Below, piece by piece: positions 23,601 to 64,000 of a stretch of 64,000 nucleotides of DNA. The position numbers were made by a program, and so were the translations under genes. Within the stretch, counting starts at the first letter, position 1; each line of letters opens with the position of its first letter. The notes beneath the pieces are model-generated. The model made no database searches and was not told where the DNA came from. It saw only the letters and a list, made by a program, of their open reading frames with translations. This stretch comes from Psococerastis gibbosa (lineage: Eukaryota; Arthropoda; Insecta; Psocodea; Psocidae), in contig OZ020490.1 of the NCBI GenBank assembly GCA_963971405.1, forward strand, positions 27,739,464 through 27,803,463, read 5' to 3'.

Positions 23601-26600
23601 TTTGCCGTAAGTCGTATGAACCGTGTTGTACGGTAGCAAAAATGGCAATGGCAATTAAAGGCAGCCGAGCGTGTATTGCGTTGCTGTTGCCTTCGGGACA
23701 AGGCAATCAACCCCTGGCCTGGGTTGTTTTGCTTCAACCACTCTGAGATTTGTGGTCGGAATTTCTGTCAACTTGTCAGGCTACTTCGGGTTAGTTACAA
23801 TCTCGATGAGTAGGTGTAAGTCAAATGTGACCCAGTAGAGCGGGATGGCCTGATGAGGTTGTCTAAAAACAATAAGGTCCTGCATGCACCATCCTCGACA
23901 TACCCACTGTAACACTCTCCCTACAATCTCAGAAACTCCCCAAATGGTAAACAAAAAATAACAAAAACTTGGAGTTTTAGAAAAACTTGTTATAACAACC
24001 CGAATTAGTAAAACCCAAATAATCGTTAAGAAATTAACTTTGTCTAAGAAACCCACTTGTGTTAGTATAAAACCCTGAGCGCTTTCGGCAAGAACTGCCA
24101 TCTACAGAGGGAAACCCACTAGCACAGTTACACCTTACCTGCGATTTGAAACTTGCTCAACTCGAGGAGAAGATGCAAATGTGACTAGGGAGAGGAAACC
24201 TTGGTTTATATAGGACTGGGAGCGGGGGGAGGAGGGGGTGGGAGGGGGCGTGGCTGGTTACCTATTCCTAACCTACTAGCTAGATCTATTAGAGGGGATG
24301 ATTGTGTGAATGTTATGTCGTTTGTTAATTTTTCCATATTGTGTAAAGCTCTTTTGATTTCAACATTTTCAAAAAAATTTAAAGTGTAACTTTTCTTTAT
24401 TTTGTGTAGGGCTGTCCAATTGTGAGGATCGAATGTGTGGTTTTCCGAGTTAAGGTGTTTCGCGAATGTGCTGTTGGTGTTGGTGTCTCCTATACCTGTT
24501 ATATGTTCTCTGACCCTAGTTTTAAAGCTTCTGCCTGTTTGGCCTATGTAAATTGCGTTACAATCGTTACAATTTAGACGATAAACTCCATTGCCTTTTT
24601 CTTTTTCTGGTTTGGTTTTGCAGTTCATGAGTTTATTGGCCAAATTGTTGCGATTGTACGGGGCTGGTGTTTTGTCTGTTGTAGAAGAAATGAGGTTACT
24701 AATTTTTTCTGTGATTTTTTCTATGTATTGTATCCTGAAATATGATTTATTGGTTACCGGGTTTTAGCTCCCTGGGGGGTAAATTAGTTTGAGGTTGTGT
24801 TTGATTTTGTGATGTCGTAGGATTCTGTCTATTAGGTTGAGATTGAAATTGTTATTTTGGGCAATTTGTTTTATTGTATTTAATTCATTATTATAGTTGG
24901 TTTGATTCATAGGGATGTTAAGGAGTCGAAAAATCATGCTATGGAATGCTGCGTGTTTGTGCTGGAATGGGTGAGAAGAATCAACAGGGATTATATTATC
25001 GCTATGGGTTTCTTTACGAAATATCTTGAAGTCTAGGGTACTATTATTTTTGGTGATGGTGAGGTCTAAGAAGTTCAGGGAGTTGTTTTCTTCTACTTCC
25101 ATGGTAAATTGGATTTTTGGGTGAATTGTGTTGATAAAACTTAAGAAATTGTCTAGTTGTCTGTTACTTCCTGTCCAAATGCAGAAGATATCATCCACAT
25201 ACCTTGTCCAGAAAGATATACATTTAACTAGGGGATTTTTATTGTGTAGAAGTTTGTGTTCGAAGTTATCCATAAAAATTTCAGCAAGAAGGGGAGAAAG
25301 GGAAGAACCCATAGGTAGACCTATTTTTTGTTGGTAGTAGTCGGATTCGAAGCGGAAATAGTTTTGATGGGTGCATGTGTCTAACAGAAGGAGGGTCTCA
25401 GAAATAAGGCTGTTCGAGGTGTTATTGTGATAGAGTGACTGGGCAACTAATTTACGTACTTCGGGTACGGGAATATTAGTAAACAGATTTTTGACATCGA
25501 AAGAGACGAGTTTGGCATTGCTGGATAAGGAAAGGTGCTTAAGGCGGGAAACCAACTCGAATGAGTTTTTGACGCTGTGGCGGGGTGTGAAGTTTGATAG
25601 CTCGCGAATGTGTTTGTTGAGAAAACTAGCTACTTTGCTGGCTGGGGCACTGTTATACGAAACTACTGGGCGGATAGGTTGATTGGGTTTATGAAGTTTA
25701 ACCAGACCAAAAAATGAAGGAGCTACGGGGTTCATGTTGGTAAATTTATAGGCTATATCTTGGGGTATCGTGTTAGAGCTTTGTTTAATGGCTTTTTTGG
25801 TTGCTTTTTGGAATTTGTTTGTGGGGTCTACTTTAAGTTTTACGAATGTGGATTCATCAGAAATGAGGTCTGAGACTTTAGAAACATAATCATGGGTAGG
25901 TAAAATGACAATAGAATTTCCTTTATCCGCCTTGGTGAGTGTAAGGTTATCTTGGGCTAGTTTCTTTTTTATAGATTTAGTGTTATCGTTTTTGTGTGTA
26001 AGTTTGACGTTTTTCAGAATATCTGCTGCTATGTGTTTTTCATTATTGTGGTTTTTTAGGCTAAATTCAGTGTCTGACATTAAGTTGGTTAACGTGTTTT
26101 TGTTTAGACCTATATCGGGGCAATACTTGAGGCCTTTGTTGAGAAGTTCCATTTCTTTTGTGTTGAAAATCGTGTTAGATAAGTTGACGGTACGAGGATA
26201 GAATTTATGTGTTGTGATGGGTAGTGTAGTGAGTGTCTGCGCTGAAGGCGTGAGGCCTTGACCTACCCCAGTCTGCATCGATCGATGAAGGGGGTTAGAC
26301 CGGGAACGTACTTTCGTCCTGCATATCTGATGTTTCGTGTCGCGATGTGATGTGTGATGTATTCCGTTGGATTTGTTATTTTGGTTTTGACTCAGTTCTT
26401 TTATTTTTTTATTTAGTGTTGTGCGTTTTTTGTAAGTGATGCAACTAATTTTTGTGTATATTTGATCTTGGAAGGTGGTCCATTCTAAAAAGTGAAGTTT
26501 AAAAGATAATTCTGAATGTAAAACTTTAAGGTAAAGGCTTATGCTGTCTCTGATTTTGAACCATTTTTTGATTTCTTCTGCAAGCCAGACTTTCTGGGCG

Positions 26601-29034
26601 ATTCTAAGTGCTTTACTGGATTGTGTGGAAAAGGTTGCTGTTTTAATTTGGATGTATTTAGGAGTGATTCTAAGTCTTTTGCAATCTTGGTTAAATTTGA
26701 GGTTAAGTGAAGCAATGGCGAATTTTTCTTTAAGTTTCCTATAGATTTTGAGTTGTTCAGCAAGACTAGCTGTTTTAACATAAATAATTAGATTACTCGT
26801 GACTTCGTGGTATTTCATTTTAATAAACAAAAAATAACAAAAACTTAGAGTTTTAGAAAAACTTGTTATAACAACCCGAATTAGTAAAACCCAAATAATC
26901 GTTAAGAAATTAACTTTGTCTAAGAAACCCACTTGTGTTAGTATAAAACCCTGAGCGCTTTCGGCAAGAACTGCCATCTACAGAGGGAAACCCACTAGCA
27001 CAGTTACGCCTTATCTGCGATTTGAGACTTGCTCAACTCGAGGAGAAGATGCAAATGTGACTAGGGAGAGGAAACCTTGGTTTATATATATTTATATCAC
27101 AATAACACCTCGAACAGCCTTATTTCTGAGACCCTCCTTCTGTTAGACACATGCACCCATCAAAACTATTTCCGCTTCGAATCCGACTACTACCAACAAA
27201 AAATAGGTCTACCTATGGGTTCTTCCCTTTCTCCCCTTCTTGCTGAAATTTTTATGGATAACTTCGAACACAAACTTCTACACAATAAAAATCCCCTAGT
27301 TAAATGTATATCTTTCTGGACAAGGTATGTGGATGATATCTTCTGCATTTGGACAGGAAGTAACAGACAACTAGACAATTTCTTAAGTTTTATCAACACA
27401 ATTCACCCAAAAATCCAATTTACCATGGAAGTAGAAGAAAACAACTCCCTGAACTTCTTAGACCTCACCATCACCAAAAATAATAGTACCCTAGACTTCA
27501 AGATATTTCGTAAAGAAACCCATAGCGATAATATAATCCCTGTTGATTCTTCTCACCCATTCCAGCACAAACACGCAGCATTCCATAGCATGATTTTTCG
27601 ACTCCTTAACATCCCTATGAATCAAACCAACTATAATAATGAATTAAATACAATAAAACAAATTGCCCAAAATAACAATTTCAATCTCAACCTAATAGAC
27701 AGAATCCTACGACATCACAAAATCAAACACAACCTCAAACTAATTTACCCCCCAGGGAGCTTAAACCCGGTAACCAATAAATCATATTTCAGGATACAAT
27801 ACATAGAAAAAATCACAGAAAAAATTAGTAACCTCATTTCTTCTACAACAGACAAAACACCAGCCCCGTACAATCGCAACAATTTGGCCAATAAACTCAT
27901 GAACTGCAAAACCAAACCAGAAAAAGAAAAAGGCAATGGAGTTTATCGTCTAAATTGTAACGATTGTAACGCAATTTACATAGGCCAAACAGGCAGAAGC
28001 TTTAAAACTAGGGTCAGAGAACATATAACAGGTATAGGAGACACCAACACCAACAGCACATTCGCGAAACACCTTAACTCGGAAAACCACACATTCGATC
28101 CTCACAATTGGACAGCCCTACACAAAATAAAGAAAAGTTACACTTTAAATTTTTTTGAAAATGTTGAAATCAAAAGAGCTTTACACAATATGGAAAAATT
28201 AACAAACGACATAACATTCACACAATCATCCCCTCTAATAGATCTAGCTAGTAGGTTAGGAATAGGTAACCAGCCACGCCCCCTCCCACCCCCTCCTCCC
28301 CCCGCTCCCAGTCCTATATAAACCAAGGTTTCCTCTCCCTAGTCACATTTGCATCTTCTCCTCGAGTTGAGCAAGTTTCAAATCGCAGATAAGGTGTAAC
28401 TGTGCTAGTGGGTTTCCCTCTGTAGATGGCAGTTCTTGCCGAAAGCGCTCAGGGTTTTATACTAACACAAGTGGGTTTCTTAGACAAAGTTAATTTCTTA
28501 ACGATTATTTGGGTTTTACTAATTCGGGTTGTTATAACAAGTTTTTCTAAAACTCTAAGTTTTTGTTATTTTTTGTTTATTAAAATGAAATACCACGAAG
28601 TCACGAGTAATCTAATTATTTATGTCCCCAAATGGACTGATCAGTTATGAATAATATAAGCCACACGGTTATCAATGAGAAAAAGTTGGCAAGCGGCTCG
28701 GATCGGAGAGGGCAACACGCATTTTTTACTTATATAAGAAAAACATTGTTGTTGTGAGTTAATCGTTGCACAATTACAGCTGTATTGTGTATTGCAGGGG
28801 TTCAACAAGGAGATTGAGGAGATGGCGAAGACGCAGCGCGGCTACACGGTGCCGGACCTCGAGCTCCGCGAGTCCCTCAAGCGGGACAACAAGGAGCTCA
28901 TTGTGCCCAAGTACAACGCCTTCTACGACCGCTACTCGGCGGTCCCCTTCTCCAAGAACCCCCACAAGTACATCAGGTACACGCCCGCGCAGGTCTCCGC
29001 CCTCATCGACCGCCTCTTCGACTCTTCCTCGTGA
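11695..29034 (+). CDS. EXOC7: exocyst complex component 7 (EXO70), 12 coding exons
   Basis: EXO70 is the exocyst subunit that binds plasma-membrane phosphoinositides and helps tether secretory vesicles. Exons: 11695-11739, 14740-14905, 16327-16457, 17357-17549, 20166-20401, 20812-20956, 21143-21327, 21550-21729, 22701-22905, 23077-23293, 23501-23606, 28798-29034. All junctions are GT-AG and the phases match, giving about 681 codons, the usual family length. The N-terminus has the coiled-coil-like EIEDKLER and ILDSFESRLGRLENTIVP. The body has IADWLMEHRRDEYMNVY, the HDFAAVLVVFPILK block, LPKDGTVHELTSNVL and LVNNYHHVLKSLQRSQLL. The last exon ends PFSKNPHKYIRYTPAQVSAL then IDRLFDSSS, the signature EXO70 C-terminus. 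Introns 1, 2 and 11 contain transposons; intron 11 (23607-28797) is swollen by the Penelope insertion. The short first exon rests on protein similarity and its good donor (AGG|GTGAGT). Confidence 0.95.
12467..13506 (+). pseudogene. Tc1/mariner-superfamily transposase relic in EXO70 intron 1
   Basis: The N-terminal part reads as a helix-turn-helix DNA-binding region with the linker KRSGRPRSV. Further on come ILFSDEKFF (first catalytic Asp), PSSVMVWLGASY, a degraded second catalytic block QNSAPTHK where Asp is normally expected, and WPSSSPDLNPLDYFIW with the third acidic position. The frame changes at about 12880-12900 and again near 13230, and the second catalytic residue is Asn, so the copy cannot be active. 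Spacing between the second and third catalytic blocks looks longer than in classic mariner, closer to the maT group, but the frameshift makes that tentative. Terminal inverted repeats were not identified. Confidence 0.82.
13507..14739. other. rest of EXO70 intron 1
   Basis: AT-rich intron with C-rich homopolymers near 13876-13887 and 14323-14336 and a short TA-rich stretch near 13760. No further gene or clear transposon was seen. The intron ends in GATTTGCAG at 14731-14739. Confidence 0.6.
15700..16225 (-). pseudogene. LINE reverse transcriptase fragment in EXO70 intron 2
   Basis: Minus-strand translation gives fragments of an RT: an IPVLKKGEP-like piece, then INCQLLEYFESNGLFN, RKGRSTTCALL and TKEILEGFENG, followed by a degraded piece near VQSPPG where a PQGS motif is normally found. 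The order fits Jockey/CR1-type ORF2. Several frame changes and stops show it is dead. It lies antisense to EXO70. Confidence 0.75.
16556..16650 (-). repeat. inverted copy of the repeat at 2276-2365
   Basis: Reverse complement shares ACGTGTCGTAACTCAACAC-like sequence, the CGATCGGAGACG segment and a run of GTGCTTGTACTT with the copy at 2276-2365. Lies in EXO70 intron 3. The family is unknown. Confidence 0.6.
17945..18201. mobile_element. foldback MITE-like element F3 in EXO70 intron 4
   Basis: Terminal inverted repeats of at least 28 bp: GGTATTGTCATCCGCCATG at the left end is matched by CATGGCGGATGACAATACC at the right end. There is no coding capacity, and the middle is AT-rich. Likely a non-autonomous DNA transposon. 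Confidence 0.7.
18230..18740. repeat. dispersed repeat family R2
   Basis: Shares ordered phrases with 45955-46720, such as CTCGTTTGAAACCTTAATTC, TTTTCAAATTGATATTAACA, AATATAGCATGGCCTGAAAG and GAAAGAGGAA. It lies in EXO70 intron 4. Open frames inside are not conserved between copies, so it is treated as non-coding. Origin unknown. Confidence 0.6.
19318..19700 (+). repeat. dispersed repeat family R1, copy with internal TA microsatellite
   Basis: Same phrase order as 43050-43440: TGCGACCAATATTAACTGAG, GCCGCCATCTTGTAACTAAA, TTTTTGTGCCAAGTTTCAT, CCTAAAATCGATAT, a (TA)n run at about 19545-19575, then TTTTGAACGAA and TCATGAAATGAAAAGTTGTG. It lies in EXO70 intron 4. The TA tract is a variable internal segment; the other copies have a short TATATACAG in its place. 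Confidence 0.75.
21880..22690. other. EXO70 intron 8, unclassified
   Basis: Begins with a poly-G run at about 21893-21909. A GC-richer stretch at about 22170-22400 stands out from the AT-rich surroundings and may be an old repeat, but no homologous copy was noticed in this window and no motif identifies it. Confidence 0.4.
24059..24125 (-). ncRNA. hammerhead-like RNA motif in 3' pseudo-LTR of the full-length copy
   Basis: Minus-strand 67-nt segment. Outer helix GTGCTAGT with ACTAACAC (one C-A mismatch), an internal loop, inner stem I CCCT/AGGG, a core-like CTGTAGA, stem II GGCA/TGCC with loop GTTCT, then GAAA, a GCGC loop, and TC as the predicted cleavage dinucleotide. The layout is that of type I hammerheads with a one-pair stem III reported in Penelope-like elements. 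The core departs from the CUGANGA consensus. Confidence 0.6.
24206..26818 (-). pseudogene. Penelope-like RT and GIY-YIG endonuclease ORF, full-length copy with one stop
   Basis: Reading from the ATG at 26818 on the minus strand there is an N-terminal basic region, then VAPSFFGLVKLHKP, FDVKNLFTNIPV, IGLPMGSSLSPLLAEIFMD and the RT catalytic YVDD in RYVDDIFCIW. After LIYPPGS the frame meets a TAA at 24764-24766. The same frame then continues with a zinc/GIY-YIG endonuclease region: GVYRLNCNDCNAIYIGQTGR then RVREH, ending in a proline-rich tail at 24206. In the neighbouring plus-strand copy the corresponding codon is TTA (Leu), so the stop is a single-base difference. The RT part is intact; the endonuclease would not be translated without readthrough. 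An open frame continues upstream into the pseudo-LTR (to 26977), so the true start is uncertain. Confidence 0.88.
26935..27001 (-). ncRNA. hammerhead-like RNA motif in 5' pseudo-LTR of the full-length copy
   Basis: Same 67-nt arrangement as in the 3' pseudo-LTR, with identical core CTGTAGA, stem II and GAAA/GCGC/TC segments. Being upstream of the ORF, it would cut the transcript near its 5' end if active. Confidence 0.6.
27089..28321 (+). pseudogene. Penelope-like ORF, 5'-truncated copy with intact C-terminal half
   Basis: Begins inside the RT domain (residues SLYHNNTSNSL in the other copy) and continues without interruption through YVDD and the GIY-YIG endonuclease to the stop at 28321. Unlike the inverted neighbour it has Leu (TTA) at the junction between RT and endonuclease. 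The N-terminal half of RT is missing, so it cannot encode a working protein, but it shows that RT and endonuclease belong to a single frame. Confidence 0.88.
28402..28468 (+). ncRNA. hammerhead-like RNA motif in pseudo-LTR of the truncated copy
   Basis: Plus-strand copy of the 67-nt motif, with every helix-forming segment preserved. It lies downstream of the GIY-YIG coding region, matching the position of the motif at 24059-24125 relative to its own ORF. Confidence 0.6.
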
Positions 29035-32000
29035 AACTTCGTCAGGCTAGTGTGTGGCATTCTTTGTGCAAGAGATGGTTTGGGATATTACTTATTTCTT
29101 ATTGAATTTTCATGTTAGACTCCTGATCTAACACAGTTAGTGGAAAGTTAGCTGTTTATATGTAGTTTAAATCGTGCTGTTTATTATACCCTGGAAAGAA
29201 CGTACAGCAAGGGAGCTTTGCAACCCATGCCAACAGTGATAATCTTGATCTTAGGATATAGGTATGTATGTAAGTACTTTTGTAATAATCTATGCGCCTC
29301 CATTCTTCTCGATGCCTGTAACTAATGTTTTATGTTTACCTATTAACTGATTTTGATACCATTGTTGCTAGAGAATGGAACACGCAAGATGGAGAGGGAG
29401 TTGAAATCCCAACATCATGAGTAGAGGAAGAAGAACGCAATGATCCACAGTAAAATACTTTAATAGTGACTGGTTTCGGATAAAATCCATCATCAGACTA
29501 ACAACACATGAAAAAACGCCAGCTTATATACAACGGGATGGGAGTGGGAGGTGGAGGCGGGGGTTGAGTACATAAATCGAGTAGTGGGGATACAGTTTGA
29601 AACATTATATTATCAAAGTATTTTACTGTGGATCATTGCGTTCTTCTTCCTCTACTCATGATGTGCTCCAAGTTCCACGAAGTCACCAAGGAAACTCTCA
29701 CAAGGTAATAGGTCAAGACTGTGCCCTTTCTGCTTGCAGCACTGAATGAGCTTAAAGTATGAATTCGTCTCCTTTGTAACTTTGCAATATTTTACACATT
29801 GTAAATTACAATAACTTAGTAATTCTTATATATAAAAATGAATCGCAAAATGTGTTGCTAAGCGCATAACTCAACAACGCCTGGACCAATTTGGACAATT
29901 CTTTTTTTAAATGTTCATTGAAGATCAACGATGGTTTTTACGGCGAAAAATTCTAATAATTGCCGGAAAAACCGTAAAAACAGCCCTTTTCCTTTTTCCC
30001 TTGATAAACGTTTTCTAACTAAAACGTTGAGTCAATTTGAGCTTTATGTTTCGCTTATATTAAGCGAAATTCTCTTCTTTGCCTGTGTCCGGACCTCAGA
30101 AAAGGGAGACTTCCATGTCCATAAGCTAAGTACAGGGGACCTTTCTAGATGGGTCAAGTTGCCAAGGGTCAAGGGCATTTCTGAGACATGAGGCAGTCGG
30201 CAGCACCTGAGCTGGAAGCCCTGTACTAACAAGTAAGTAAGTTGCCTCTTATGAATGCTGGACAATTGTATGTTTCGCTTATAAGCGAAATTCTCTTCTT
30301 TGCCTGTGTCCGGGATCAACCATTTTTGATGGTTGAAGCCGAAGCTGATGGGTATTTTTTATCGGCTGCAATTTAAAATTACAATTAAAATAACCAGATT
30401 AGCCATAAGGTTAGAAACCAGGGCCATGGACATTGACATGTGTTAAAAAAATTGAAATTGAACAATAAACTGAATAAACTGATTTTTGTTAATTGTTTCA
30501 CATGATGCCGCTGTGCCGGTACCTGAGTTGCCTCTTATGAATGGGGGTTGTGCGCAACACCAGATTTTCATATTATTTTGTTAGGTAGCTGCTTGGTTAA
30601 GCTAAGTGCTGGGGACTGTTCTGTGGAGTGCCGCTGTGCCGGTACCTGCTTGGTTTGGATTCAACAACTAATTAGGGCCACTACGACCATTCTCAGGTGT
30701 CATGCGAGCCCCGCTTGTATTATTATAAAAATTACCCACAACCGGTTTCGACATCAAGTTGACAATGACTTAATGATTTACCGTAAGTTTGATAAAATTA
30801 AGTAGGCCTATGAATATGAAAAAATCTGTTTAAATTAAATTAAATTTTAAAAACTGTTTTATAATATTTATTATATTGTCTTCGGAGTAATACCTCATGG
30901 TGGCGAAGATCCCTAATCTGTAGCTCCTTCTTGTGCAGATGGAAACGCGTAATGGCGACTGAACATATAGTAGACCGAGTTGGAGCCGGGATAAACGAAA
31001 AACACCGTCCATTCTGTGCAGGCCACTCTTATTAAGGATGCAGAAGGAAACGGGAAGTATAGTATAGTCTCATCATGTGCTCATGTCAATCTTCGATAGA
31101 AGAGGCATTTAAAGAAGAAGCCTACCAACTTTAAAGTACATCACGAGTTTAGAGGCCCACTATGGCGATATGGCCCCAGTTGCAGTCTCCAGTTAATTTC
31201 CCAGGAGAGCCAAAAATCGCTGCTGAACCAAATCTTTAAACTATTTTTACGCTAGACTATCCCAGAATTTGCTACTTATCATAATTTTCCAATGGATAAA
31301 TTTCAACGTGAAGAATCCAGCATCGGTGCCAAAAACTCAATTTCTGAAATTTGTGGACTGCCCAGATTGCTTATATACCACTTTTTCTAATATATATATG
31401 TATATATATACAGGCCTATATACATATACAAATATATTACACACCCCCACCCCTCGAAAACATATACTGCTTCTAGGTCTTAATTTATTAATTTATTACG
31501 ATCTGAGTGTCAACCTACACCGCTGCATGATGAGCTCCATGTAAGAGTTTCTCCACTGGCTTCGTTGAAGTGATACATTAGTACATTAAAAAAATAATAT
31601 GTATAAAAGGAACTTCACACTAATTAATTACTCATGAGCTATCCTATTTTAGAATTTTGAACACTATTAAAGTCTAGATGTACATTTTTACAAGATGAAC
31701 CCAATTAAATCTAAGTAGGCCCTAGTATTTTAGTACAAAATCATGGTTTCATTATCTGATTATCATTATTAGTTAAATTATGCCAAAAATTGTCATGTGT
31801 CTTGTGCAAATTTCAGTAAATGAATCAATAAAAACATAAGTATTGAGTTCTACGGCCACATACCTATTGGAAAAACCAACAAAACGTAAAATTAATTGCA
31901 AAAATATAAGTGAATTAATTTATCCCGCCGTTTCTGCTTCAAATTAAAATTTCCCCGCATTTATCGAAATCGAATGTGCGCCATGTTTTTTTCCGTTTAC

Positions 32001-41000: not shown

Positions 41001-44000
41001 TCACATAGGCCAACCACGTCAGCAAATTTTAATTATGTCCAAGTCAAAGTACAGAACATCACACATAACTAATTGTTGAATCGATAAATGTAAAAAGCAC
41101 AAAATAACCAATAAGACATGCGAATAAATAACAGAATACAGTATAGCGGCATAAATAGACAATGCCAGTCTCAAAGTTAATGGCGGGGAACGGCTTGGTT
41201 GGTTCTAAAATTTGGAGAAGAAATATTCCATGAATCGGTTCCTGTAGATTTGAAACAATTTTGTATTTGTGCGTAATTAGGGGAAAACGGTTTTGAGGTA
41301 ATAAATGAGTGTTGGCTTTCAGACGTTGCTGCAGTCGTACGGAGAGAACGTGAGCAACAAGAGTCAGACGTTGCTGCAGATCATCACCAAGTTCGCGTCT
41401 GCGTACTGCGCCACCATTGAGGGTACTGCGCGCAACATCGAGACCACCGAGCTGTGAGTCTTGACCGCCACAAACAGTGACAGCCCCCAGTCTCAGTTGA
41501 GCTCCAATTAAAAATCTTACATCTAGGAGTTAACGTTGCAATGCTTGGCATGTAGGCACATTTTTGGGAATTGAATTTTTCCCATTGATATAAAATAAGC
41601 TTTATAGAACAAACTACTGGTAATAATTTTTAAAATCGTGGAGAATTGATGAGGCGGGTGTTATTGTAGGTGTGGAGGGGCGCGGATGTGCTACATATTC
41701 CACGAGACGTTCACGCGTGCGCTCCACAAGATCAACCCGCTGGCCGGGCTGACCAAGGGCGAGATCCTCACGGCGATCCGCAACGCCACGGGTCCCCGCC
41801 CCGCCCTATTCGTGCCCGAGGTCTCGTTCGAGCTGCTCGTGAAGCGGCAGATTCGGCGGCTGGAGGAGCCAAGCCTGCGCTGTGTTGAGCTCGTGCATGA
41901 CGAGATGCAGAGCATCATTCAGCACTGCGGTGTCGAGGTGCAGCAGGAGATGCTACGCTTCCCCAAGCTCTACGACCGCATCGTCGACGTTGTCACACAC
42001 CTGCTCCGGCGCAGGCTCCCCACCACCAACCAGATGGTCAGTGTCTTCAAAATACATATGCAATCAAGTTTTATTTCGCCAAATGTCCAGTTTAGTACAT
42101 TGCTGCAAGTTGGTTTGTTTTAGGTTGAGAACCTGGTGGCGATAGAGCTGGCGTACATCAACACGAAGCACCCGGACTTCCACAGGGACGTGGTCATGTC
42201 GGCGTGTCGCGTCAAGTCCGAGAAGCAGCAGACCAACGCCTCGCTCGCACAGATACTACCTCTGCCCCCGAGGGTGAGTCCCCTTATTAAAATTAATATT
42301 TAACCCAATCATTCGTCTTTGTAAAAGAGAGTAATGGCTCCAATATCGTATCGTTCTTTGTATTATGGAAGCCCTGTACTAAGAAGTAAGTTTGTATTAT
42401 ATAAACAATAATAAACGTCTTATATTTACGGGGCGAGACTTAAGACTAGAAAGTCCTTTTCTGTCTGACCCACATCCAAAATATCAATTCACTTTCCAAA
42501 ATAGAGTACATAGTAAAAAAAAATCAGCTTCACTTAAATAATCTTATTCTAAGCGTAATTATAAAAAATCCCTTTCGATCAGGTGTAGGGAGATTCCGCA
42601 GACCCTGCTTTTCCTCTACGCTACCTACGCTATGTGTGTAATAAAAAATAAAAATAAACTGCATTATTTTCCCGACCACAACATCAACACACAAAACACT
42701 CTTAAATAAAATAAAAATAAATAAGGACTTTTATTGTTTCTATTACTAAGCCAACCTAGCGGAGTTAGGGCTATAAAGCCCGACGTCGTTTTTCAATGTG
42801 AATGTGCATGACGTGGTAGCAGACATCATTAATAAGTCTCCACCATATTATAACTTAATTTATAATAGATAAGTTAAGTATCTACATTATAGTCTCCTTA
42901 AAATATGGCAGAGACTTATTAATGATGTCTGCTACCACGTCATGCACATTCACATTGAAAAACAACGTCGGTGGAATAACCGCCTTATGAAATTATTTTC
43001 ACTTTGACTGCACGCCATCATGTTATCGTTGATTTGTAGTAAAGTGGTTATTACCATTATCGTAGATAATAATACGGGCTTTCAGTCAGATTAACATTAA
43101 TTCATTCCTCTGCGACCAATACTAACTGAGATATGAATTATATAAGGTTTTAATCAGCCGCCATCTTGTAACTAAATAGTGGATCGAGCTGGTTAACGAA
43201 CTCGATCAAGACATTTGTATGATAAATTTTTGTGCCAAGTTTCATAAAAATCAGATAATATTAACGGAAGTTAGAGTGTTTCCTAAAATCGATATTCATA
43301 CATATATACAGTATATAAAATTTTGAACGGAGGGAGGTTTTAGGCTCAGGGGGTCTTGAAATGAAAAGTTGTGAAGAAATTTTCCGGAAGTCGAACATTG
43401 GTCGCCATCTCAATAGGTAGATGAGTTCCCTAAAATAGGCGTACTGTAAATTGTAATTTAAGATCTAAGCAAGCAGGAAACAATTTAATTTATTCATATT
43501 ATCTGGTTTCTGTACCAAGCATTTTTTTTTAATAACTGGCTTTTAAACCCACGAATCTTTGTCTGCGAACTGATTTGCCTATCTAGGGACTTCCATTGGC
43601 GGCAGACACTTTCAATAAAAGAAGTAGTATAATTTAAAGCTGTGTGTGGGGTCGGGGTATCCGTAACTTATATATTACGGTATTTCTTTGCAAATTCAAT
43701 GGCTGGCGGTCATAGAGGTATGAAGGTACTTATTTAAGCCATATCAATTATGTTATGTTTGTTACTCACTAGTAATTTATCATACATTTCTGCACAAATT
43801 TGGCTCTTTTGTCTCCAACTGGATATGTGATGGGGGCTTAAATCCTTAAAATGGTATCCGGCGGTCTAGGTTTACCAAATGTCGTGTGTTGCAGAGTGAG
43901 GGCAGTCCGGTGCTGTCGCCGCCGGCAGACGCGATGAGCAGTGGCGACGAGGCCCGCGCAGGCGCCCTGCTCAGCCCCGTGAAGCCGGTCAACCTACTGC

Positions 44001-45279
44001 CGGAGGTGCCCCCTCACGGCGGCCGCAAGTACTCGGAGCGGGAGCAACGCGACTGTGACATTATAGGTGAGCCTGCTGCTCGATCGTGATAGCTTGTGGA
44101 ATTGCTTCTTCCTTGTTGTTGGAATTTGACTTGAGCAACTTGTCCAAGTGAAGAATCTGAGCATTGTGTATCCTTCTGCTGCCACTGGGATAGTCTCAAT
44201 GAGCGTATACATGACAGAGACTGCCAAAATAAAATACCTAATTGAATGTATACAACACTTGCAGGTATGATGGGAGTAGGTAAGTGTTTCAGGCGGTTGT
44301 TTAGTGGACCGGTCTAATAGCGAAGGCGCCCATTCCACCGTCCGGCTAGGGCTATTTACAAAAACGGTGACGTGGTAGCAGACATTCAAGACTTAGGTGG
44401 CGTTTCCACCGACCTCGCATTGCAGAATTGACGGAAATGTTTATTTTCCTCTATGCCATAGTTAAAATTGATCAATGATCACACAGTAAAATCACAAACA
44501 AACAAACTAAAATTAAAAAATGGCGTCTCATGGGATATGTTAAGTACAAACATTTTAATAGATTTCTATAAAAAGAAAAATTCAAATTTCCGTCAATGTC
44601 ATTTGCATTCTGCAATGCGTGGTCGGTGGAAACGCCACCTAAGTCTTGAATGTCTGCAACCACGTCACCGTTTTTGTAAATAGCCCTAGCCGGTCGGTGG
44701 AATGGGCGCAGGTACTGTGCTGTCGTGTTCACAGATCGGTATTTAATTGTTGCAGAGAATCTGATCCTGACGTACTTCCACATCGTGCGGAAGAGCATCC
44801 AGGACAGCGTGCCCAAGGCCATCATGCACTTCCTGGTGAACTACGTCAAGGACAATCTGCAGAGCGAGCTGGTGACGCACTTGTACAAGGACCAGGCGGA
44901 GGAGCTGCTCGAGGAGTCTTGTCTCATCGCGCAGCAGAGGAAGGAGGCCGCGGACATGCTTCAGGTAGCACATGTCATACGGTCTTATGTTTTCTGTACC
45001 AATGAGGGCTGTATGTTGGAATTTAGCCAGCGAGGTATGGCCTGTGGTCCAGCGGTTAAGATGACGCCCCGCTTAGGCGTAAATCGTGGGTTCGAATCCC
45101 GCCAAGCCCAGTTTTTGTATATCCTCTAATTTCTGTCATTACGTGGAGGTTACCTCGTTAATTTAATGTGCCGATTTTGGGTTACAAGGAGTAACATAGT
45201 GAAAAGCTGTGTTTGGTTACAGGCGCTGCAGAAGGCCTCACTCATCATCAGCGACATCCGGGAGACGCACCTCTGGTAA
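32096..45279 (+). CDS. Drp1: dynamin-related protein 1 (DRP1/DNM1L), 11 coding exons
   Basis: DRP1 is a cytosolic GTPase recruited to mitochondria and peroxisomes, where its helical oligomers drive fission. Exons: 32096-32197, 34049-34193, 39720-39928, 40032-40242, 40442-40722, 41323-41453, 41670-42036, 42124-42273, 43895-44066, 44756-44964, 45223-45279. The phases close perfectly, giving about 677 codons. The start is [15 protein letters not shown]. The P-loop GTQSSGKSS is split between exons 1 and 2. Switch I lies near [11 protein letters not shown], the DLPG motif ([11 protein letters not shown]) ends exon 3 and TKLD ([11 protein letters not shown]) ends exon 4. The stalk follows, with [20 protein letters not shown]. 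Exon 9 is the short variable/B-insert region, and the GED lies in exons 10-11 ([19 protein letters not shown]), ending RETHLW. The weakest junction is the exon 3 acceptor (TTTAAG). Introns 1, 2, 8, 9 and 10 carry mobile elements. Confidence 0.96.
32750..33380 (-). pseudogene. LINE RNase H domain fragment in DRP1 intron 1
   Basis: Minus-strand translation gives the RNase H start motif [12 protein letters not shown] followed by [14 protein letters not shown] and ETTIVLQ, as in the C-terminal RNase H of I/R1/Jockey-type elements. Later motifs are lost. A frame of about 139 codons spans 32964-33380; the rest down to 32750 is only weakly suggestive. Confidence 0.65.
33480..33720 (-). pseudogene. 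LINE C-terminal fragment in DRP1 intron 1
   Basis: In the minus direction, pieces read [25 protein letters not shown] and HGYNTRGRN across two frames. This is the tail found after RT in CR1/L2-like elements (an FK-hydrophobic-NGL-P-YL then HxYxTR pattern). Frameshifts and stops show decay. It belongs to a different lineage from the RNase H fragment beside it. Confidence 0.6.
34941..36191 (+). pseudogene. Jockey ORF1 (Gag-like nucleic-acid-binding protein)
   Basis: A 416-codon frame whose central part aligns with the PRE_C2HC region of insect X-element/Jockey ORF1. Three CCHC-like knuckles follow, visible as [27 protein letters not shown] and [15 protein letters not shown]. The nearest ATG with a typical start (34918, MEELIPK) is in another frame, so there is a small indel at the N-terminus; an in-frame ATG lies about 20 codons in. 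In active elements this protein coats the RNA and carries it to the target. Confidence 0.88.
36200..38877 (+). pseudogene. Jockey ORF2 (endonuclease and reverse transcriptase), broken
   Basis: Segments in order: AP-endonuclease pieces [27 protein letters not shown] and SDHLPLL; a frame change near 37020; RT with [50 protein letters not shown] and [17 protein letters not shown]; a stop at 37881; the GVPQGG block; the SINE insertion at 38043-38119; then a catalytic FADDTGIV block at about 38180 and the C-terminal region to 38877 ([23 protein letters not shown]). The N-terminal end of the endonuclease is missing. It is dead through several independent lesions. Confidence 0.87.
38043..38119 (+). 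mobile_element. SINE 3'-fragment inserted in Jockey ORF2
   Basis: A 77-bp insert flanked by the 12-bp duplication AAGCTATACACG (38031-38042 and 38120-38131). It interrupts the RT coding sequence between the GVPQGG and FADD blocks. Its sequence (GGAGGTTACCTCTTCAACC, TTAATTTAATGTCAGTGTTA) matches the body of the SINE at 45038-45172 and, inverted, 61549-61630. It is a 5'-truncated retroposed copy and younger than the Jockey element. Confidence 0.82.
39054..39420. repeat. dispersed repeat family R3
   Basis: TTGTTTCTATTACTAAGCCA and ACCTAGCGGAGTTAGGGCTA recur at 42722-42780. It directly abuts the Jockey tail in DRP1 intron 2. Related words (CTCAACTCTGCCCTCC) occur near 62623. There is no coding capacity; the family is unidentified. 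Confidence 0.6.
40723..41322. other. DRP1 intron 5
   Basis: AT-rich intron containing GCCGAAACCGGTTGTATAAT near 40911, a word pattern seen at Penelope-type termini, and no other recognisable element. It ends at the acceptor GGCTTTCAG. Confidence 0.5.
42715..42780. repeat. dispersed repeat family R3, short copy
   Basis: Nearly identical to the start of 39054-39120, and cut exactly where the foldback element at 42781 begins. That suggests the foldback element inserted into, or next to, this repeat. Lies in DRP1 intron 8. Confidence 0.65.
42781..42970. mobile_element. foldback MITE-like element F4a in DRP1 intron 8
   Basis: Long terminal inverted repeats of about 60 bp: CGACGTCGTTTTTCAATGTG at the left, and its near-complement ending AACAACGTCG at the right. 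Both arms contain the word GTGGTAGCAGACATCATTAA or its complement. The middle (AAGTTAAGTATCTACATTAT, TAGTCTCCTTAAA) is shared with 63184-63477. Confidence 0.8.
43050..43440 (+). repeat. dispersed repeat family R1, longest copy
   Basis: The most complete copy: TTACCATTATCGTAGA, ACGGGCTTTCAGTCAGATT, CTCTGCGACCAATACTAACT, GCCGCCATCTTGTAACT, TGGTTAACGAACTCGATCA, CCTAAAATCGATATTCATAC, a short TA stretch, TTTTGAACGGAGGGAGG and AAAGTTGTGAAGAAATTTTC. Copies at 1-330, 2480-2640 and 19318-19700 cover parts of it. Lies in DRP1 intron 8. Confidence 0.75.
44336..44709. mobile_element. foldback MITE-like element F4b in DRP1 intron 9
   Basis: Inverted repeats of about 110 bp. The left arm runs GCGCCCATTCCACCG, CTAGGGCTATTTACAAAAAC, GGTGACGTGGTAGCAGACAT and AGGTGGCGTTTCCACCGACC; the right arm (about 44600-44709) is its complement with few changes. 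The phrase GTGACGTGGTAGCAGACAT links it to 42781-42970. Apparent open frames over it are just the arms read on either strand. Confidence 0.82.
45038..45172 (+). mobile_element. tRNA-derived SINE in DRP1 intron 10
   Basis: The head contains an A-box-like TGGTCCAGCGGTTA and a perfect B-box GGTTCGAATCC about 40 bp downstream, as in a tRNA promoter, but the piece does not keep a full tRNA cloverleaf. The body (GTATATCCTCTAATTTC, GGAGGTTACCTCGTTAAT, TTAATTTAATGT) matches the pieces at 38043-38119 and 61549-61675. Transcribed by RNA polymerase III and moved by LINE machinery, if typical. It sits between the last two DRP1 exons. Confidence 0.8.
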
Positions 45280-49015: not shown

Positions 49016-52000
49016 CTAATTGGGTTTTCCAGCTTGAGGGCGACCTCCTCCCCCGCTCGTCCAGTTCCGTCCTCGCTGGGCCCCCGGCGTCCCGCGACCT
49101 CGCCCCCGAGCCGCTGAAACAAGGTAAATTAATAATAGGCTATGTGTTACATTACTAGACAATTATTGATGCCTCCTAAGTATTCAATTTTCTTCACGGT
49201 GACTATTGAGGTGGGATAAGATAAAACGAAGTTATACAATAGAAACCTCTGAAGAGGGGTTGAAGGAGATAGTTTATCTATACTTCGGGCACTGGTGTTA
49301 CCCAAAATCCAATTGAATATGCACAGTCCGAATCCGTATGAGATTCGTTTTTTCTCCACTTTACCACCAGGCATGTGAGTGAGTACTCCAATTAATTATT
49401 AGCTCCACTTTGTTATTTGCCGCCGATAAAACCATCTCCCCTACTGAGGCCCAAGTTATGGAAAATGCTCTGCTGGCAATATAAAGCTGTTGCTTAACGA
49501 CGGCAAGACACAAAATGTTCCCTCAATACTCGAGCCTTAAATACATAGTGATAACGTGAAACTGTTGAGGAAATTGTCAAATGTATTATTCCTTCTAAGA
49601 GAGGTCTAGGTCACCCAGCAGTTTCTGGTTGTGGTGCACCATGCTATTTTTAACAGCCACATAACTTACCCTCAGGGGCCACTCTGTTCGGTAGCTGGAG
49701 CCGGAGGCCTCTGTATCTATGGGCATACTTATTGTGTATGTAGCAAACGCAATACAAGAAATGCTCACCTTTTATATTTGCCCAGATGCAGCTAAGTAAG
49801 CCTATTTCTTCTTTCTCCAATTAGATAAGAACGCCTTAGCCAGTAGCCTCAGATATAAACATCTTTCGGGATTCAAGGTAGAAATTGAGCGTAAGATGTC
49901 CATTGTATAGTAATAATGAATTTGGGGAAATAAATTAGGATGTACATACTGTACGCTAACCCATTAAGTCATGCTTCTGCATTAAATTTGACTTTTATTT
50001 TGGTTTGTTTTAGAATGATATAATTGAATGTCCTAAAAGGGCTTCTAACCTAACAACTTTTTTCCCCAGTGCCACCAGACAAAGAATAGCTCATCTCTCG
50101 TATACACAACGCCATAAAGTAATGTAATACCATAGACAAATAACTAATATATACTATACCTTGGGCTCGCAGAATTGCAGACTTGCCCCTCCCTGCACCC
50201 TGTGTGCCTTTTTGAACCCGTTTGAACATGGGCGCGTTTTTTAGCATGTCTGGCAGTACGAGGAACCTGATCTTGGAGCCGCGGATGTAGATGTTCTCGA
50301 CCTGCTGTTTGCTGCCGTCGCGCAGCGCCACCTGGCATTGCTGCATCTGACAGTTCATGTTGTCCTCGGCTTCAATAAGCTTTCCTCGGTACACCTCGCC
50401 TGTGATGGTCTCGCATGTCACTATATGACCTTCTGCCTCGTGCAAAACCTATTAAATCCCAAAATTATCAATAGGACCTTGGCATGTAGGCATTATAGGG
50501 TGCAATGAATTTTCTTCTGCAAAAACCGAATGTTTACTATCAAAATGCGTAACCCCACCACTATTCCGCGCTTATTTTTCAAAAAACAACTTTTTATATA
50601 TGCATATATATAATTGTATCCACCCCCTCCCCTAGAAGGGAAATCCTGCATATTTGACAATAACATTATATTTAATAAGTCAGAAACGTCACTTAAAGAA
50701 CTGGCACGACTGAACCCGTACATGCCATCCTATATACCAATTAGTAGGTACCAAGGCAGATAATAATATAGTTCCATGGTAATTAAATTTGGCTTGCCTC
50801 GACTTCCCCAGTCCCAATGCAATAAATTGATCAATGGAACGATTGCATTGTCAAGAACGGAAAGCTTAATATTAGACTATATGCATCTCCCCGTTATTTA
50901 GAATATAATATTGTACAACACAGCAATAATAGCATGAATTATCCATAATTTCTTTAAAAATATTTTTTATTCAATACCAAAACTTTGCGTTGTTACTCTA
51001 ACACCTAAAACCTAAAGTTAGAAATCTGCAATAGAAAAGTTCCTCAGAAATTTTTTTTTAGAAATTGTTCCATGAAAATTGAGTCTTTTATCTGGTGAGG
51101 GTCTAGTTAAGCTATCCCGCGGGGCAAAAAGTCGGAAGAAAATGAATACATAAAATGGATGGCAAATGTCCTATTGGCAACATTATTTATATTGCATTGT
51201 TTTATTTACATGCCTCTGACATGTTCTTTTCATAAAATTTGTAATGATAATACATTTTTTTAAATGAAATTCGACACGTAGGTTCACAAAAATCATGCCT
51301 CGGGACCATTTTTTTTATTTTGGGCTAACTCAATTTGGGGGGGTTTTATTTTCAAAAAACGTCTAAAAAAATTATTTCTCGAAAACGGCCCTAACGATTT
51401 CTTTTAAATTCACATATATTGTAGTCATTATAAATGTTAAAATGCGGGGGGTCGCTTGCCCCTTGATAGTTTGTTTCTGGGGGTAAAAAAATAAAAATAA
51501 CTAAATTTTAATTGAAAAATGACTAAAAAATAATTTTTCTGTGAAACCTTTCCATCGATGATTTCTACCTTCAGGCATGTTTTAGGTGTTAAATTGAGTA
51601 ATGAAACCGGACAGATTGCTTTCCCAAAAAACTATTTGGTTTTGTGCAAAAAAAAATGTTTTTGAAAAAATGATTAAAAATTCACGGTCAAATGCATTGC
51701 GTGCCCTGCCATTATTGCTGTGTGGTAATTTGTTGGTCTGACCTATCTAGAATTTACCTCCACCTCCAGTGACGGCAGGTGGACAACCCCCCCCCCCCCC
51801 CCCCCCGAGATATTGGAAATCTAACCATAGGAAAATTATTTTCCATGAAATTACTCATTTTCTCGAGCTACTACTTGATAAATTGGAAAGCATGTTCGAG
51901 TAAACTCGGACCGGTTCTTTTTATTAGGGATAGCTTAATCCTTCACGGCAACTATCTTGGGCATTGTGGGTAGGCCTATGTCGTAGGGTGAATTGTTGTT

Positions 52001-63477: not shown

Positions 63478-63577
63478 ATTACACACTCAAATATTGTTCC
63501 AACATTCGATCCAATAAATACGGGTACAAGAAAAATTCGAAAGTGTAATACCTAAATTCAGATTCAAGTCGCAAACT

Positions 63578-63802
63578 CTTCTCCTCGAGTTGAGCAAGTC
63601 TCAAATCGCAGATAAGGTGTAACTGTGCTAGTGGGTTTCCCTCTGTAGATGGCAGTTCTTGCCGAAAGCGCTCAGGGTTCTATACTAACACAAGTGGGTT
63701 TCTTAGACAAAGTTAATTTCTTAACGATTATTTGGGTTTTACTAATTCGGGTTGTTATAACAAGTTTTTCTAAAACTCTAAGTTTTTGTTATTTTTTTTT
63801 TA
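63578..63802 (+). mobile_element. solo Penelope pseudo-LTR (extremely 5'-truncated copy)
   Basis: Matches the pseudo-LTR at 28340-28575 almost base for base and is flanked by TCGCAAACT at 63569-63577 and 63803-63811, a 9-bp duplication. No RT or endonuclease sequence is present. It is an independent insertion of the same family as the element in EXO70 intron 11, showing at least two insertions within 40 kb. Confidence 0.88.
63625..63691 (+). ncRNA. hammerhead-like RNA motif in the solo pseudo-LTR
   Basis: Fourth copy of the 67-nt motif. It differs from the 28402-28468 copy in the stem I internal loop (GGGTTC where the other has GGGTTT after the cleavage dinucleotide), while both stems, the CTGTAGA core, GAAA and GCGC loop are unchanged. 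A substitution confined to a loop is compatible with the fold. Confidence 0.6.
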
Positions 63803-64000
63803 TCGCAAACTTAAAGTTAAACATTCCAAATATTTCTTCGACCGAATAAATATTTGGTTAAATAAATATTTGAGTGTGTAATTATTACTTTTTTTAGATT
63901 AACTATCTTGCCCCCTCACCTCTCACCTTACTTGTGTATTGAGTTGGTAGGGCGTCTATTTCACTGCTTGCCGTGGGGGTTCGCAATTCCTCCATTTCCG

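What the first reader, a model, noticed from the sequence alone, without database searches (positions are those of the whole stretch)
28402..28468. Hammerhead-like ribozyme with an altered core in all four Penelope pseudo-LTRs
Seen: outer helix GTGCTAGT/ACTAACAC, internal loop, inner stem I CCCT/AGGG, stem II GGCA/TGCC, GAAA, a four-base loop GCGC closed by one A-U pair, and TC before AGGG. Known: Penelope-like elements carry type I hammerheads with such a minimal stem III in their pseudo-LTRs. Odd: the usual CUGANGA core reads CTGTAGA plus an extra T before stem II, identically in copies at 24059, 26935, 28402 and 63625. Either this family uses a variant core or it amplified from an inactivated master while keeping the fold.
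Basis: partly seen in the sequence, partly recalled or inferred. Interest (0 to 1): 0.78.

Follow-up and report, generated by a model that had tools for sequence, protein, structure and literature searches.

The report
Jumping gene with altered self-cleaving RNA
A very abundant jumping gene in this large eukaryotic genome carries, over its own start codon, a hammerhead-type self-cutting RNA whose catalytic heart has been altered, so it is a natural test of whether such elements need that RNA scissor at all.

Summary
In detail: four Penelope-like (PLE) pseudo-LTRs carry a minimal type I hammerhead fold with core CUGUAGA plus an extra U. Two corrections. (2) The real anomaly is two bases, A6->U with N7=A. 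It is genome-wide: 1428 matches to the variant-core pattern against 661 with CTGATGA, reversed-pattern controls 0. CTGATGA occurs 0 times in this family's 31-mer at up to one mismatch; two copies read CTGAAGA. Of 27 motif-covering hits chosen by flanking sequence, 27 keep U6A7. Stems I and II covary across families (fitted alignment). Stem III is a palindrome, AGCGCU here, CCGG-cored in 27 of 30 normal-core sites, as a dimer-type hammerhead would need. Published mutants say changes at A6 cripple cleavage. Best reading: a PLE family that amplified from masters with an attenuated or dead hammerhead; an active variant core is not excluded. Cleavage could not be tested.

The parts
28402..28468 (+). 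Hammerhead-fold motif, family A: outer helix, internal loop, inner stem I CCCT/AGGG, core CTGTAGA+T, stem II GGCA/TGCC, GAAA, GCGC, TC
28420..28427 (+). Altered core CTGTAGA (A6->T, N7=A relative to CTGANGA) plus one T before stem II
   Evidence: read against the normal-core site
28426..28428 (+). ATG start codon made of A9, the extra U and the first G of stem II; in-frame TAG (core bases 6-8) directly upstream; no other ATG between the TATA box and this ATG
28444..28450 (+). AGCGCT (28444-28449), a perfect palindrome, and C17 (28450); predicted cleavage after C28450, i.e. after nt 25 of the ORF
   Evidence: read directly
26935..27001 (-). Copy of the motif in the 5' pLTR of the full-length element
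24059..24125 (-). Copy of the motif in the 3' pLTR of the full-length element
63625..63691 (+). Copy of the motif in a pLTR-only insertion (63578-63802)
28315..28321 (+). TATATAA box 111 nt upstream of the ATG
24764..26977 (-). PLE ORF, 737 codons from the hammerhead ATG: reverse transcriptase (RVT_1); an in-frame stop ends it early in this copy
24206..24643 (-). C-terminal part of the same frame: GIY-YIG endonuclease and proline-rich end
27077..28321 (+). 5'-truncated second copy of the ORF (end of RVT_1, GIY-YIG) in inverted orientation
23937..23947 (.). Left target-site duplication TCCCCAAATGG of the 23948-28624 insertion (right copy at 28625-28635)
63569..63577 (.). Left target-site duplication TCGCAAACT of the 63578-63802 insertion (right copy at 63803-63811)
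29464..29500 (-). Second PLE hammerhead site, family B, normal core CTGATGA + T, stem II GGAT/ATCC, GAA, ACCAGT, C; follows the 3' end of a PLE ORF and a TATATAA box

Best explanation
It is a Penelope-like retrotransposon whose pseudo-LTR carries a minimal, dimer-type (type I) hammerhead that overlaps the start of the ORF. In this family (A) the conserved A6 of the catalytic U-turn has become U, with A at position 7. The change is fixed in the masters of a family with 1428 pattern matches. Shown: a PLE with a hammerhead-type fold in its pLTR, near-universal altered core in the copies examined, helices that covary with those of normal-core PLE families, a palindromic stem III. Inferred: self-cleavage is strongly attenuated or absent, the family amplified anyway because fast cleavage is not needed for mobilisation, and the fold persists because it is inherited by young copies and overlaps coding sequence. 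Cleavage would cut the mRNA 25 nt after the start of the AUG and so separate the start codon from the ORF. A weakened core may therefore even favour translation.
For: RVT_1 and GIY-YIG domains; inverted pLTR architecture with target-site duplications, as described for Penelope (passages of PMC3846280). AUG-hammerhead overlap and cut position nearly as in the anole PLE PAc, whose ORF begins at stem II with the cut 26 bp downstream (section of PMC11167929). 1428 matches to the variant-core pattern, reversed control 0. CTGATGA in the family-A 31-mer at up to one mismatch: 0; of the six one-mismatch sites two read CTGAAGA. 27 of 27 motif-covering hits (about 25 distinct copies; 19 further hits in the same 30 loci do not reach the motif) keep U6A7. 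Covariation score 0.467 against 0.126 for shuffles, 7 of 9 pairs changed on both sides. Against activity: in a mutational scan all single and double mutants in the CUGA turn region had low activity except the C-G to G-C swap (PMC9901934 section 7); a natural A6C hammerhead cleaves at under 0.1/min (PMC3088659 section 8). PAc hammerhead-dead mutants still insert RNA in vitro. U6 also permits a competing U4-G5-U6/GCG pairing in the monomer, probability about 0.6.
Against: No cleavage was measured. The published mutants are of a type III hammerhead (PMC9901934) and a phage one with A6C (PMC3088659), not of a dimeric PLE hammerhead with U6, A7 and an extra U. PAc shows that a PLE protein can switch on cleavage. 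Stem II, GAAA, A-U, UC and the stem III palindrome are intact in most copies seen, which an inactive motif would not need; but young copies cannot show how long that has lasted. The sampling of older copies was by the core pattern itself, so the age of the change is not established.
Confidence: 0.6

Rival explanations
1. The CUGUAGA core is a working natural variant: in the dimer, or with the PLE protein bound, it still cleaves usefully, so the family kept both helices and catalysis while replacing A6.
For: The altered-core class is the larger of the two pattern classes counted (1428 against 661), and the altered core is seen in copies down to 82-90% pLTR identity, although those were chosen by the core pattern. 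Stem III AGCGCU is a perfect palindrome, different from the CCGG palindrome of 27 of 30 normal-core sites, so self-complementarity was kept while sequence changed. Non-consensus cores with residual activity exist (PMC3088659).
Against: Mutational data and the A6C case argue for very low rates. U6 stabilises a competing fold in the monomer. Sequence retention in young copies does not need activity.
Confidence: 0.2
2. The change was selected at the level of translation: A6-U7-G8 in the CTGATGA core is an in-frame AUG directly before the AUG at A9, and the altered core turns it into an in-frame UAG, giving a single start and a stop to upstream frames, at the price of the ribozyme.
For: Normal-core sites read CTG ATG ATG (the pattern demanded it in the genome search; the window site was found without that demand), family A reads CTG TAG ATG. 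The family-A leader has no other ATG between TATA and start, whereas the family-B leader has an out-of-frame ATG as well.
Against: No expression data. The change also puts U at -3 of the AUG, a weaker start context by general knowledge. No reason is visible why this family alone would need it.
Confidence: 0.12
3. Chance resemblance: not a hammerhead relative at all.
For: Rfam finds no hammerhead; lone-strand stability is ordinary; the predicted lowest-energy monomer fold pairs core bases.
Against: 0.01 expected per window, position and AUG overlap nearly as in a known PLE hammerhead, covariation with normal-core families; Rfam misses those too.
Confidence: 0.02

Closest known systems
Minimal type I hammerheads of Penelope-like elements (Cervera and De la Pena 2014; Lunse et al. 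2017; cited in papers seen, not held themselves)
   Same: Place in pseudo-LTRs, missing or minimal stem III, apparent dimer design (passages of PMC7761336 and PMC6155905)
   Different: Core CUGUAGA instead of CUGANGA, near-universal in the copies examined
PAc hammerhead of the anole PLE (PMC11167929)
   Different: No altered A6 is mentioned for PAc in the section read; PAc cleavage was shown and needed the protein, here nothing is measured
Natural core-variant hammerheads (PMC3088659: A6C in phage Bcep176, an insertion after A6, others)
   Same: Departure at position 6 with the fold kept
   Different: U6 and A7 together, and in a high-copy transposon family
Viroid hammerhead with an extra nucleotide in the core (De la Pena and Flores 2001, seen only as a citation)
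   Same: One extra base in the core; its placement next to A9 is recalled
   Different: Here the extra U belongs to a start codon. A passage of PMC11014351 says an extra core nucleotide in a viroid hammerhead weakens cleavage, so the extra U could itself cost activity

Membership tests
Penelope-like element | Reverse transcriptase plus GIY-YIG endonuclease in one ORF | tested here: met
   RVT_1 1.5e-13, GIY-YIG 1.7e-05 and 2.3e-05; the frame is interrupted by one stop in the full-length copy
Penelope-like element | Pseudo-LTRs, inverted partial copy, optional tail, target-site duplication | tested here: met
   three 3' ends fall at two places about 45 nt apart; 11-bp and 9-bp duplications; compared with PMC3846280 passages
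Hammerhead ribozyme (type I, minimal) | Stems I and II around the core, supported by covariation | tested here: met
   7 of 9 pairs changed on both sides, 91.9% of cells paired; the two outer pairs of stem I fail in 6 of 23 rows each. The alignment was fitted to the model and most rows were chosen by a pattern that fixes the first two pairs of stem II. Stem I has at least 3 of 4 pairs in 21 of 30 normal-core sites
Hammerhead ribozyme (type I, minimal) | GAAA, A15.1-U16.1 and UH at the cleavage site | tested here: met
   4 of 4 window copies
Hammerhead ribozyme (type I, minimal) | Conserved core CUGANGA | tested here: not met
   CTGTAGA in 4 of 4 window copies and U6A7 in 27 of 27 flank-selected, motif-covering hits; in the genome two family-A sites with CTGAAGA and none with CTGATGA at up to one mismatch of the 31-mer
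Hammerhead ribozyme (type I, minimal) | Stem III formed in a dimer | tested here: inconclusive
   AGCGCT palindrome in A; CCGG between A and T in 27 of 30 normal-core sites, but ACCAGT (4 of 6) in the window's family-B copy; dimer folding energies alone did not settle it
Hammerhead ribozyme (type I, minimal) | Self-cleavage activity | not testable with these tools
   needs a transcript assay

The most novel reading that the evidence does not exclude
A hammerhead with the core CUGUAGA (U6, A7) is catalytically competent in its native dimeric, protein-assisted setting and drives one of the largest PLE expansions in this genome, which would overturn the view that A6 of the U-turn is required.
Probability: 0.18. 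Interest if true: 0.75.

Novelty: new variant of a known kind. Interest (0 to 1): 0.5.

Why it matters
The role of hammerheads in PLEs is described as unknown (PMC7761336 passages). Here one genome offers side by side a very successful family with an altered core and several families with the normal core, with the same architecture. Either catalysis tolerates the loss of A6 in this setting, or a PLE family can expand to over a thousand pattern matches without a fast hammerhead. Both outcomes are decided by simple cleavage assays on native sequences.

Tried and rejected
Rfam as arbiter: rejected, since it misses a normal-core PLE site too. Lone-strand folding energy: uninformative. Pattern scans of IMG/VR viral contigs and GTDB prokaryote contigs gave no PLE: after a stem filter over the 224 loci held, 8 rows remained, all in viral or prokaryote contigs. 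The two with the altered core (L123 archaeal, L162 bacterial) are taken as chance, a judgement. A protein scan of viral contigs found no relative. With the core-only model R2 it is the best hit outside the family, E 0.053, 15.9 bits, filters off. Against this: in a nine-source run with default filters the site is not listed at all, and the pattern-picked contigs L211 and L213 (16.6 bits), L162 (15.9) and L123 (15.6) score as well. R2 alone therefore does not prove family B; the PLE ORF end beside it and its genome-wide relatives do more. An automatic two-sequence alignment misplaced the core and was dropped. The first own-genome DNA search returned nothing; the tool says common words are skipped; patterns were used instead.

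Literature limits: hammerhead + A6U returned 0 papers. CUGUAGA did not occur in the 12 papers listed, but that call needed three of five terms, so a paper with only two would not show. Only the open library was searched, and Cervera 2014 and Lunse 2017 are not held. I do not claim that the variant is unpublished. Papers seen by named section: PMC11167929 (section 3 part 2, and passages), PMC3088659 (section 8, and passages), PMC9901934 (section 7, and passages). By passages only: PMC10085705, PMC6155905, PMC12531169, PMC7761336, PMC11014351, PMC3846280. Hammerhead numbering (A6, N7, G8, A9, 10.1) is recalled usage, consistent with the sections read.
Full report
What is there. The segment 28402-28468 is part of a pseudo-LTR of a Penelope-like element (PLE). 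Four pLTR copies occur in the window. Three of them belong to one insertion, 23948-28624: a full-length copy on the minus strand (pLTR, ORF, pLTR) fused head to head with a 5'-truncated copy on the plus strand, flanked by an 11-bp duplication. The fourth is a pLTR-only insertion at 63578-63802 with a 9-bp duplication. The ORF shows a reverse transcriptase and a GIY-YIG endonuclease. In the full-length copy one in-frame stop interrupts it after residue 737, while the truncated copy is open across that place. The three outer 3' ends fall at two places about 45 nt apart. That resembles the optional PLE 'tail' and the two reverse-transcription start sites described for the anole element (PMC11167929).

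The motif. Each pLTR holds inner stem I CCCT/AGGG, core CTGTAGA, an extra T, stem II GGCA/TGCC, GAAA, a GCGC loop closed by A-U, and TC before AGGG, with an outer helix of 7 of 8 pairs. A descriptor of this kind is expected 0.01 times per window with a relaxed core (4 hits in 400 Markov-1 sequences; 0 in 60).

The extra T explained. ATG at 28426-28428 is the first ATG after the TATA box (111 nt, none between) and opens the ORF. A9, the extra U and the first G of stem II form this AUG. In the anole PLE the ORF also begins at stem II and the cut lies 26 bp downstream; here the predicted cut lies after nucleotide 25 of the ORF. I take the extra U as a property of PLE hammerheads of this layout.

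A comparator in the window. A descriptor that allows zero or one extra base finds a second site on the minus strand at 29496, with the normal core CTGATGA plus T, stem II GGAT/ATCC, GAA, ACCAGT, C. A core-only model built from family A puts it first outside the family, E 0.053, next best 5.2 (filters off). With default filters over nine sources it is not listed, and four pattern-picked viral or prokaryote sites score as well, so the model alone is weak evidence. Independently, the site follows the 3' end of a PLE ORF (39% identity over 41 residues to family A, E 0.001 in the window) and a TATATAA box. Between the two families 5 of 8 helix pairs differ on both sides and all 8 pair; this count is partly circular because the descriptor requires pairing.

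Genome scale. The window lies in a 409-Mb genome of 68 contigs. The pattern CTGTAGATGGN{3,14}CCGAAANNNNTC has 696 + 732 = 1428 matches, reversed control 0 + 0; every place printed there has a stem II beginning GGCA, but only the first places are printed. The same pattern with CTGATGATGG has 338 + 323 = 661 matches, control 0 + 0, spread over several stem II types. Both counts are sites, not independent insertions, and the pattern misses other N7 bases and other stem II closings. A 42-base flank pattern 3' of the motif, up to 3 mismatches, has 993 + 969 = 1962 matches, control 0 + 0. Of these, 30 loci were fetched, with 46 BLAST hits to the pLTR. Of the 46 hits 27 cover the motif (about 25 distinct copies, since neighbouring loci overlap) and 19 do not. 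25 of 27 read CTGTAGAT, one CTTTAGAT, one CTGTATAT; none has the normal core. The 30 loci had an exact flank match, so this is a sample of young copies. A direct search for the family-A 31-mer with the normal core, up to one mismatch, finds 0 exact and 6 one-mismatch sites: 3 CTGTTGA, 2 CTGAAGA, 1 CTTATGA. Two copies (CTGAAGA) thus satisfy CUGANGA; as isolated cases they look like point mutations. Copies with two or more other differences were not covered by that search.

Relatedness and covariation. In 10 of the 30 fetched normal-core loci (two overlap) a PLE ORF end 32-45% identical to family A lies next to a hammerhead; one further row of that range, L310, is a flank-selected locus (rows over 40 residues). 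Normal-core families are thus distinct PLE families. Model R2 over 28 of the 90 own-genome loci held at that point gave 35 matches (23 distinct rows; weak or decayed ones were kept). 91.9% of cells pair, 7 of 9 pairs change on both sides, covariation score 0.467 against 0.126 (sd 0.026) in shuffles, and slid controls reach at most 0.137. Against it: the two outer pairs of stem I fail in 6 of 23 rows each, stem I has at least 3 of 4 pairs in only 21 of 30 normal-core sites, the alignment is fitted to the model, most rows were chosen by a pattern that fixes the first two pairs of stem II, and related rows inflate the numbers. Stem III: family A has AGCGCT, a perfect palindrome; 27 of 30 normal-core sites have CCGG between A and T, also a palindrome, while the window's family-B copy has ACCAGT, 4 of 6. 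Such palindromes let two molecules share a six-pair stem III, as expected of PLE hammerheads reported to cleave as dimers (Lunse et al. 2017, known here from citations only).

Does it cleave? Not testable here. A mutational scan of a type III hammerhead found low activity for all single and double mutants in the CUGA turn region except a C-G to G-C swap (PMC9901934). A natural A6C hammerhead had k_obs below 0.1/min and an insertion after A6 was also poor (PMC3088659). U6 also allows U4-G5-U6 to pair with the GCG of loop III in the monomer, probability about 0.6. On the other hand the anole PLE hammerhead cleaves only with its protein, and its dead mutants still support RNA insertion in vitro. 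Low intrinsic activity therefore need not stop a PLE.

Judgement. That this is a PLE hammerhead relative with a non-consensus core in nearly every copy examined is close to certain. That the core is attenuated or dead is likely but rests on other ribozymes. I do not file it as an active hammerhead, because the defining core was tested and is not met. It works like a hammerhead module in position, fold and start-codon overlap.

Noticed in passing
window 29412-29664: Family-B PLE remnant on the minus strand: end of ORF, TATA box and normal-core hammerhead, flanked by a 54-bp inverted repeat of its own tail (29412-29465 and 29611-29664, 98%).
   Followed up: partly
L211:1295-1338 (+), L213:998-1041 (-), viral contigs: Strong-looking type I hammerhead with stem III closed by a UUCG loop and also an extra U before stem II, which the search pattern demanded; Rfam does not report it at E up to 1 in L211.
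   Followed up: partly
window 24133-24141 (-): The 24-kb pLTR copy reads CAGGTAAGG where the other three read CAGATAAGG, creating a splice-donor-like site in the leader.
   Followed up: no
window 45038-45110: tRNA match (41.5 bits) that lies inside the ORF 44725-45129, downstream of its dynamin GED domain.
   Followed up: no
window 41686-42123, 44725-45129, 50050-50445: Host gene pieces: dynamin central region and GED, and an LSM-domain protein.
   Followed up: no
L253:1497-1535, L309:615-653: Two family-A copies share CCCC instead of CCCT in stem I (breaking the pair next to the cleavage site), hinting at a subfamily that also has the altered core.
   Followed up: partly
L262, L269 around 1500: Normal-core hammerheads in head-to-head palindromes a few bases apart, so one transcript could fold as a long hairpin instead of two ribozymes.
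   Followed up: no
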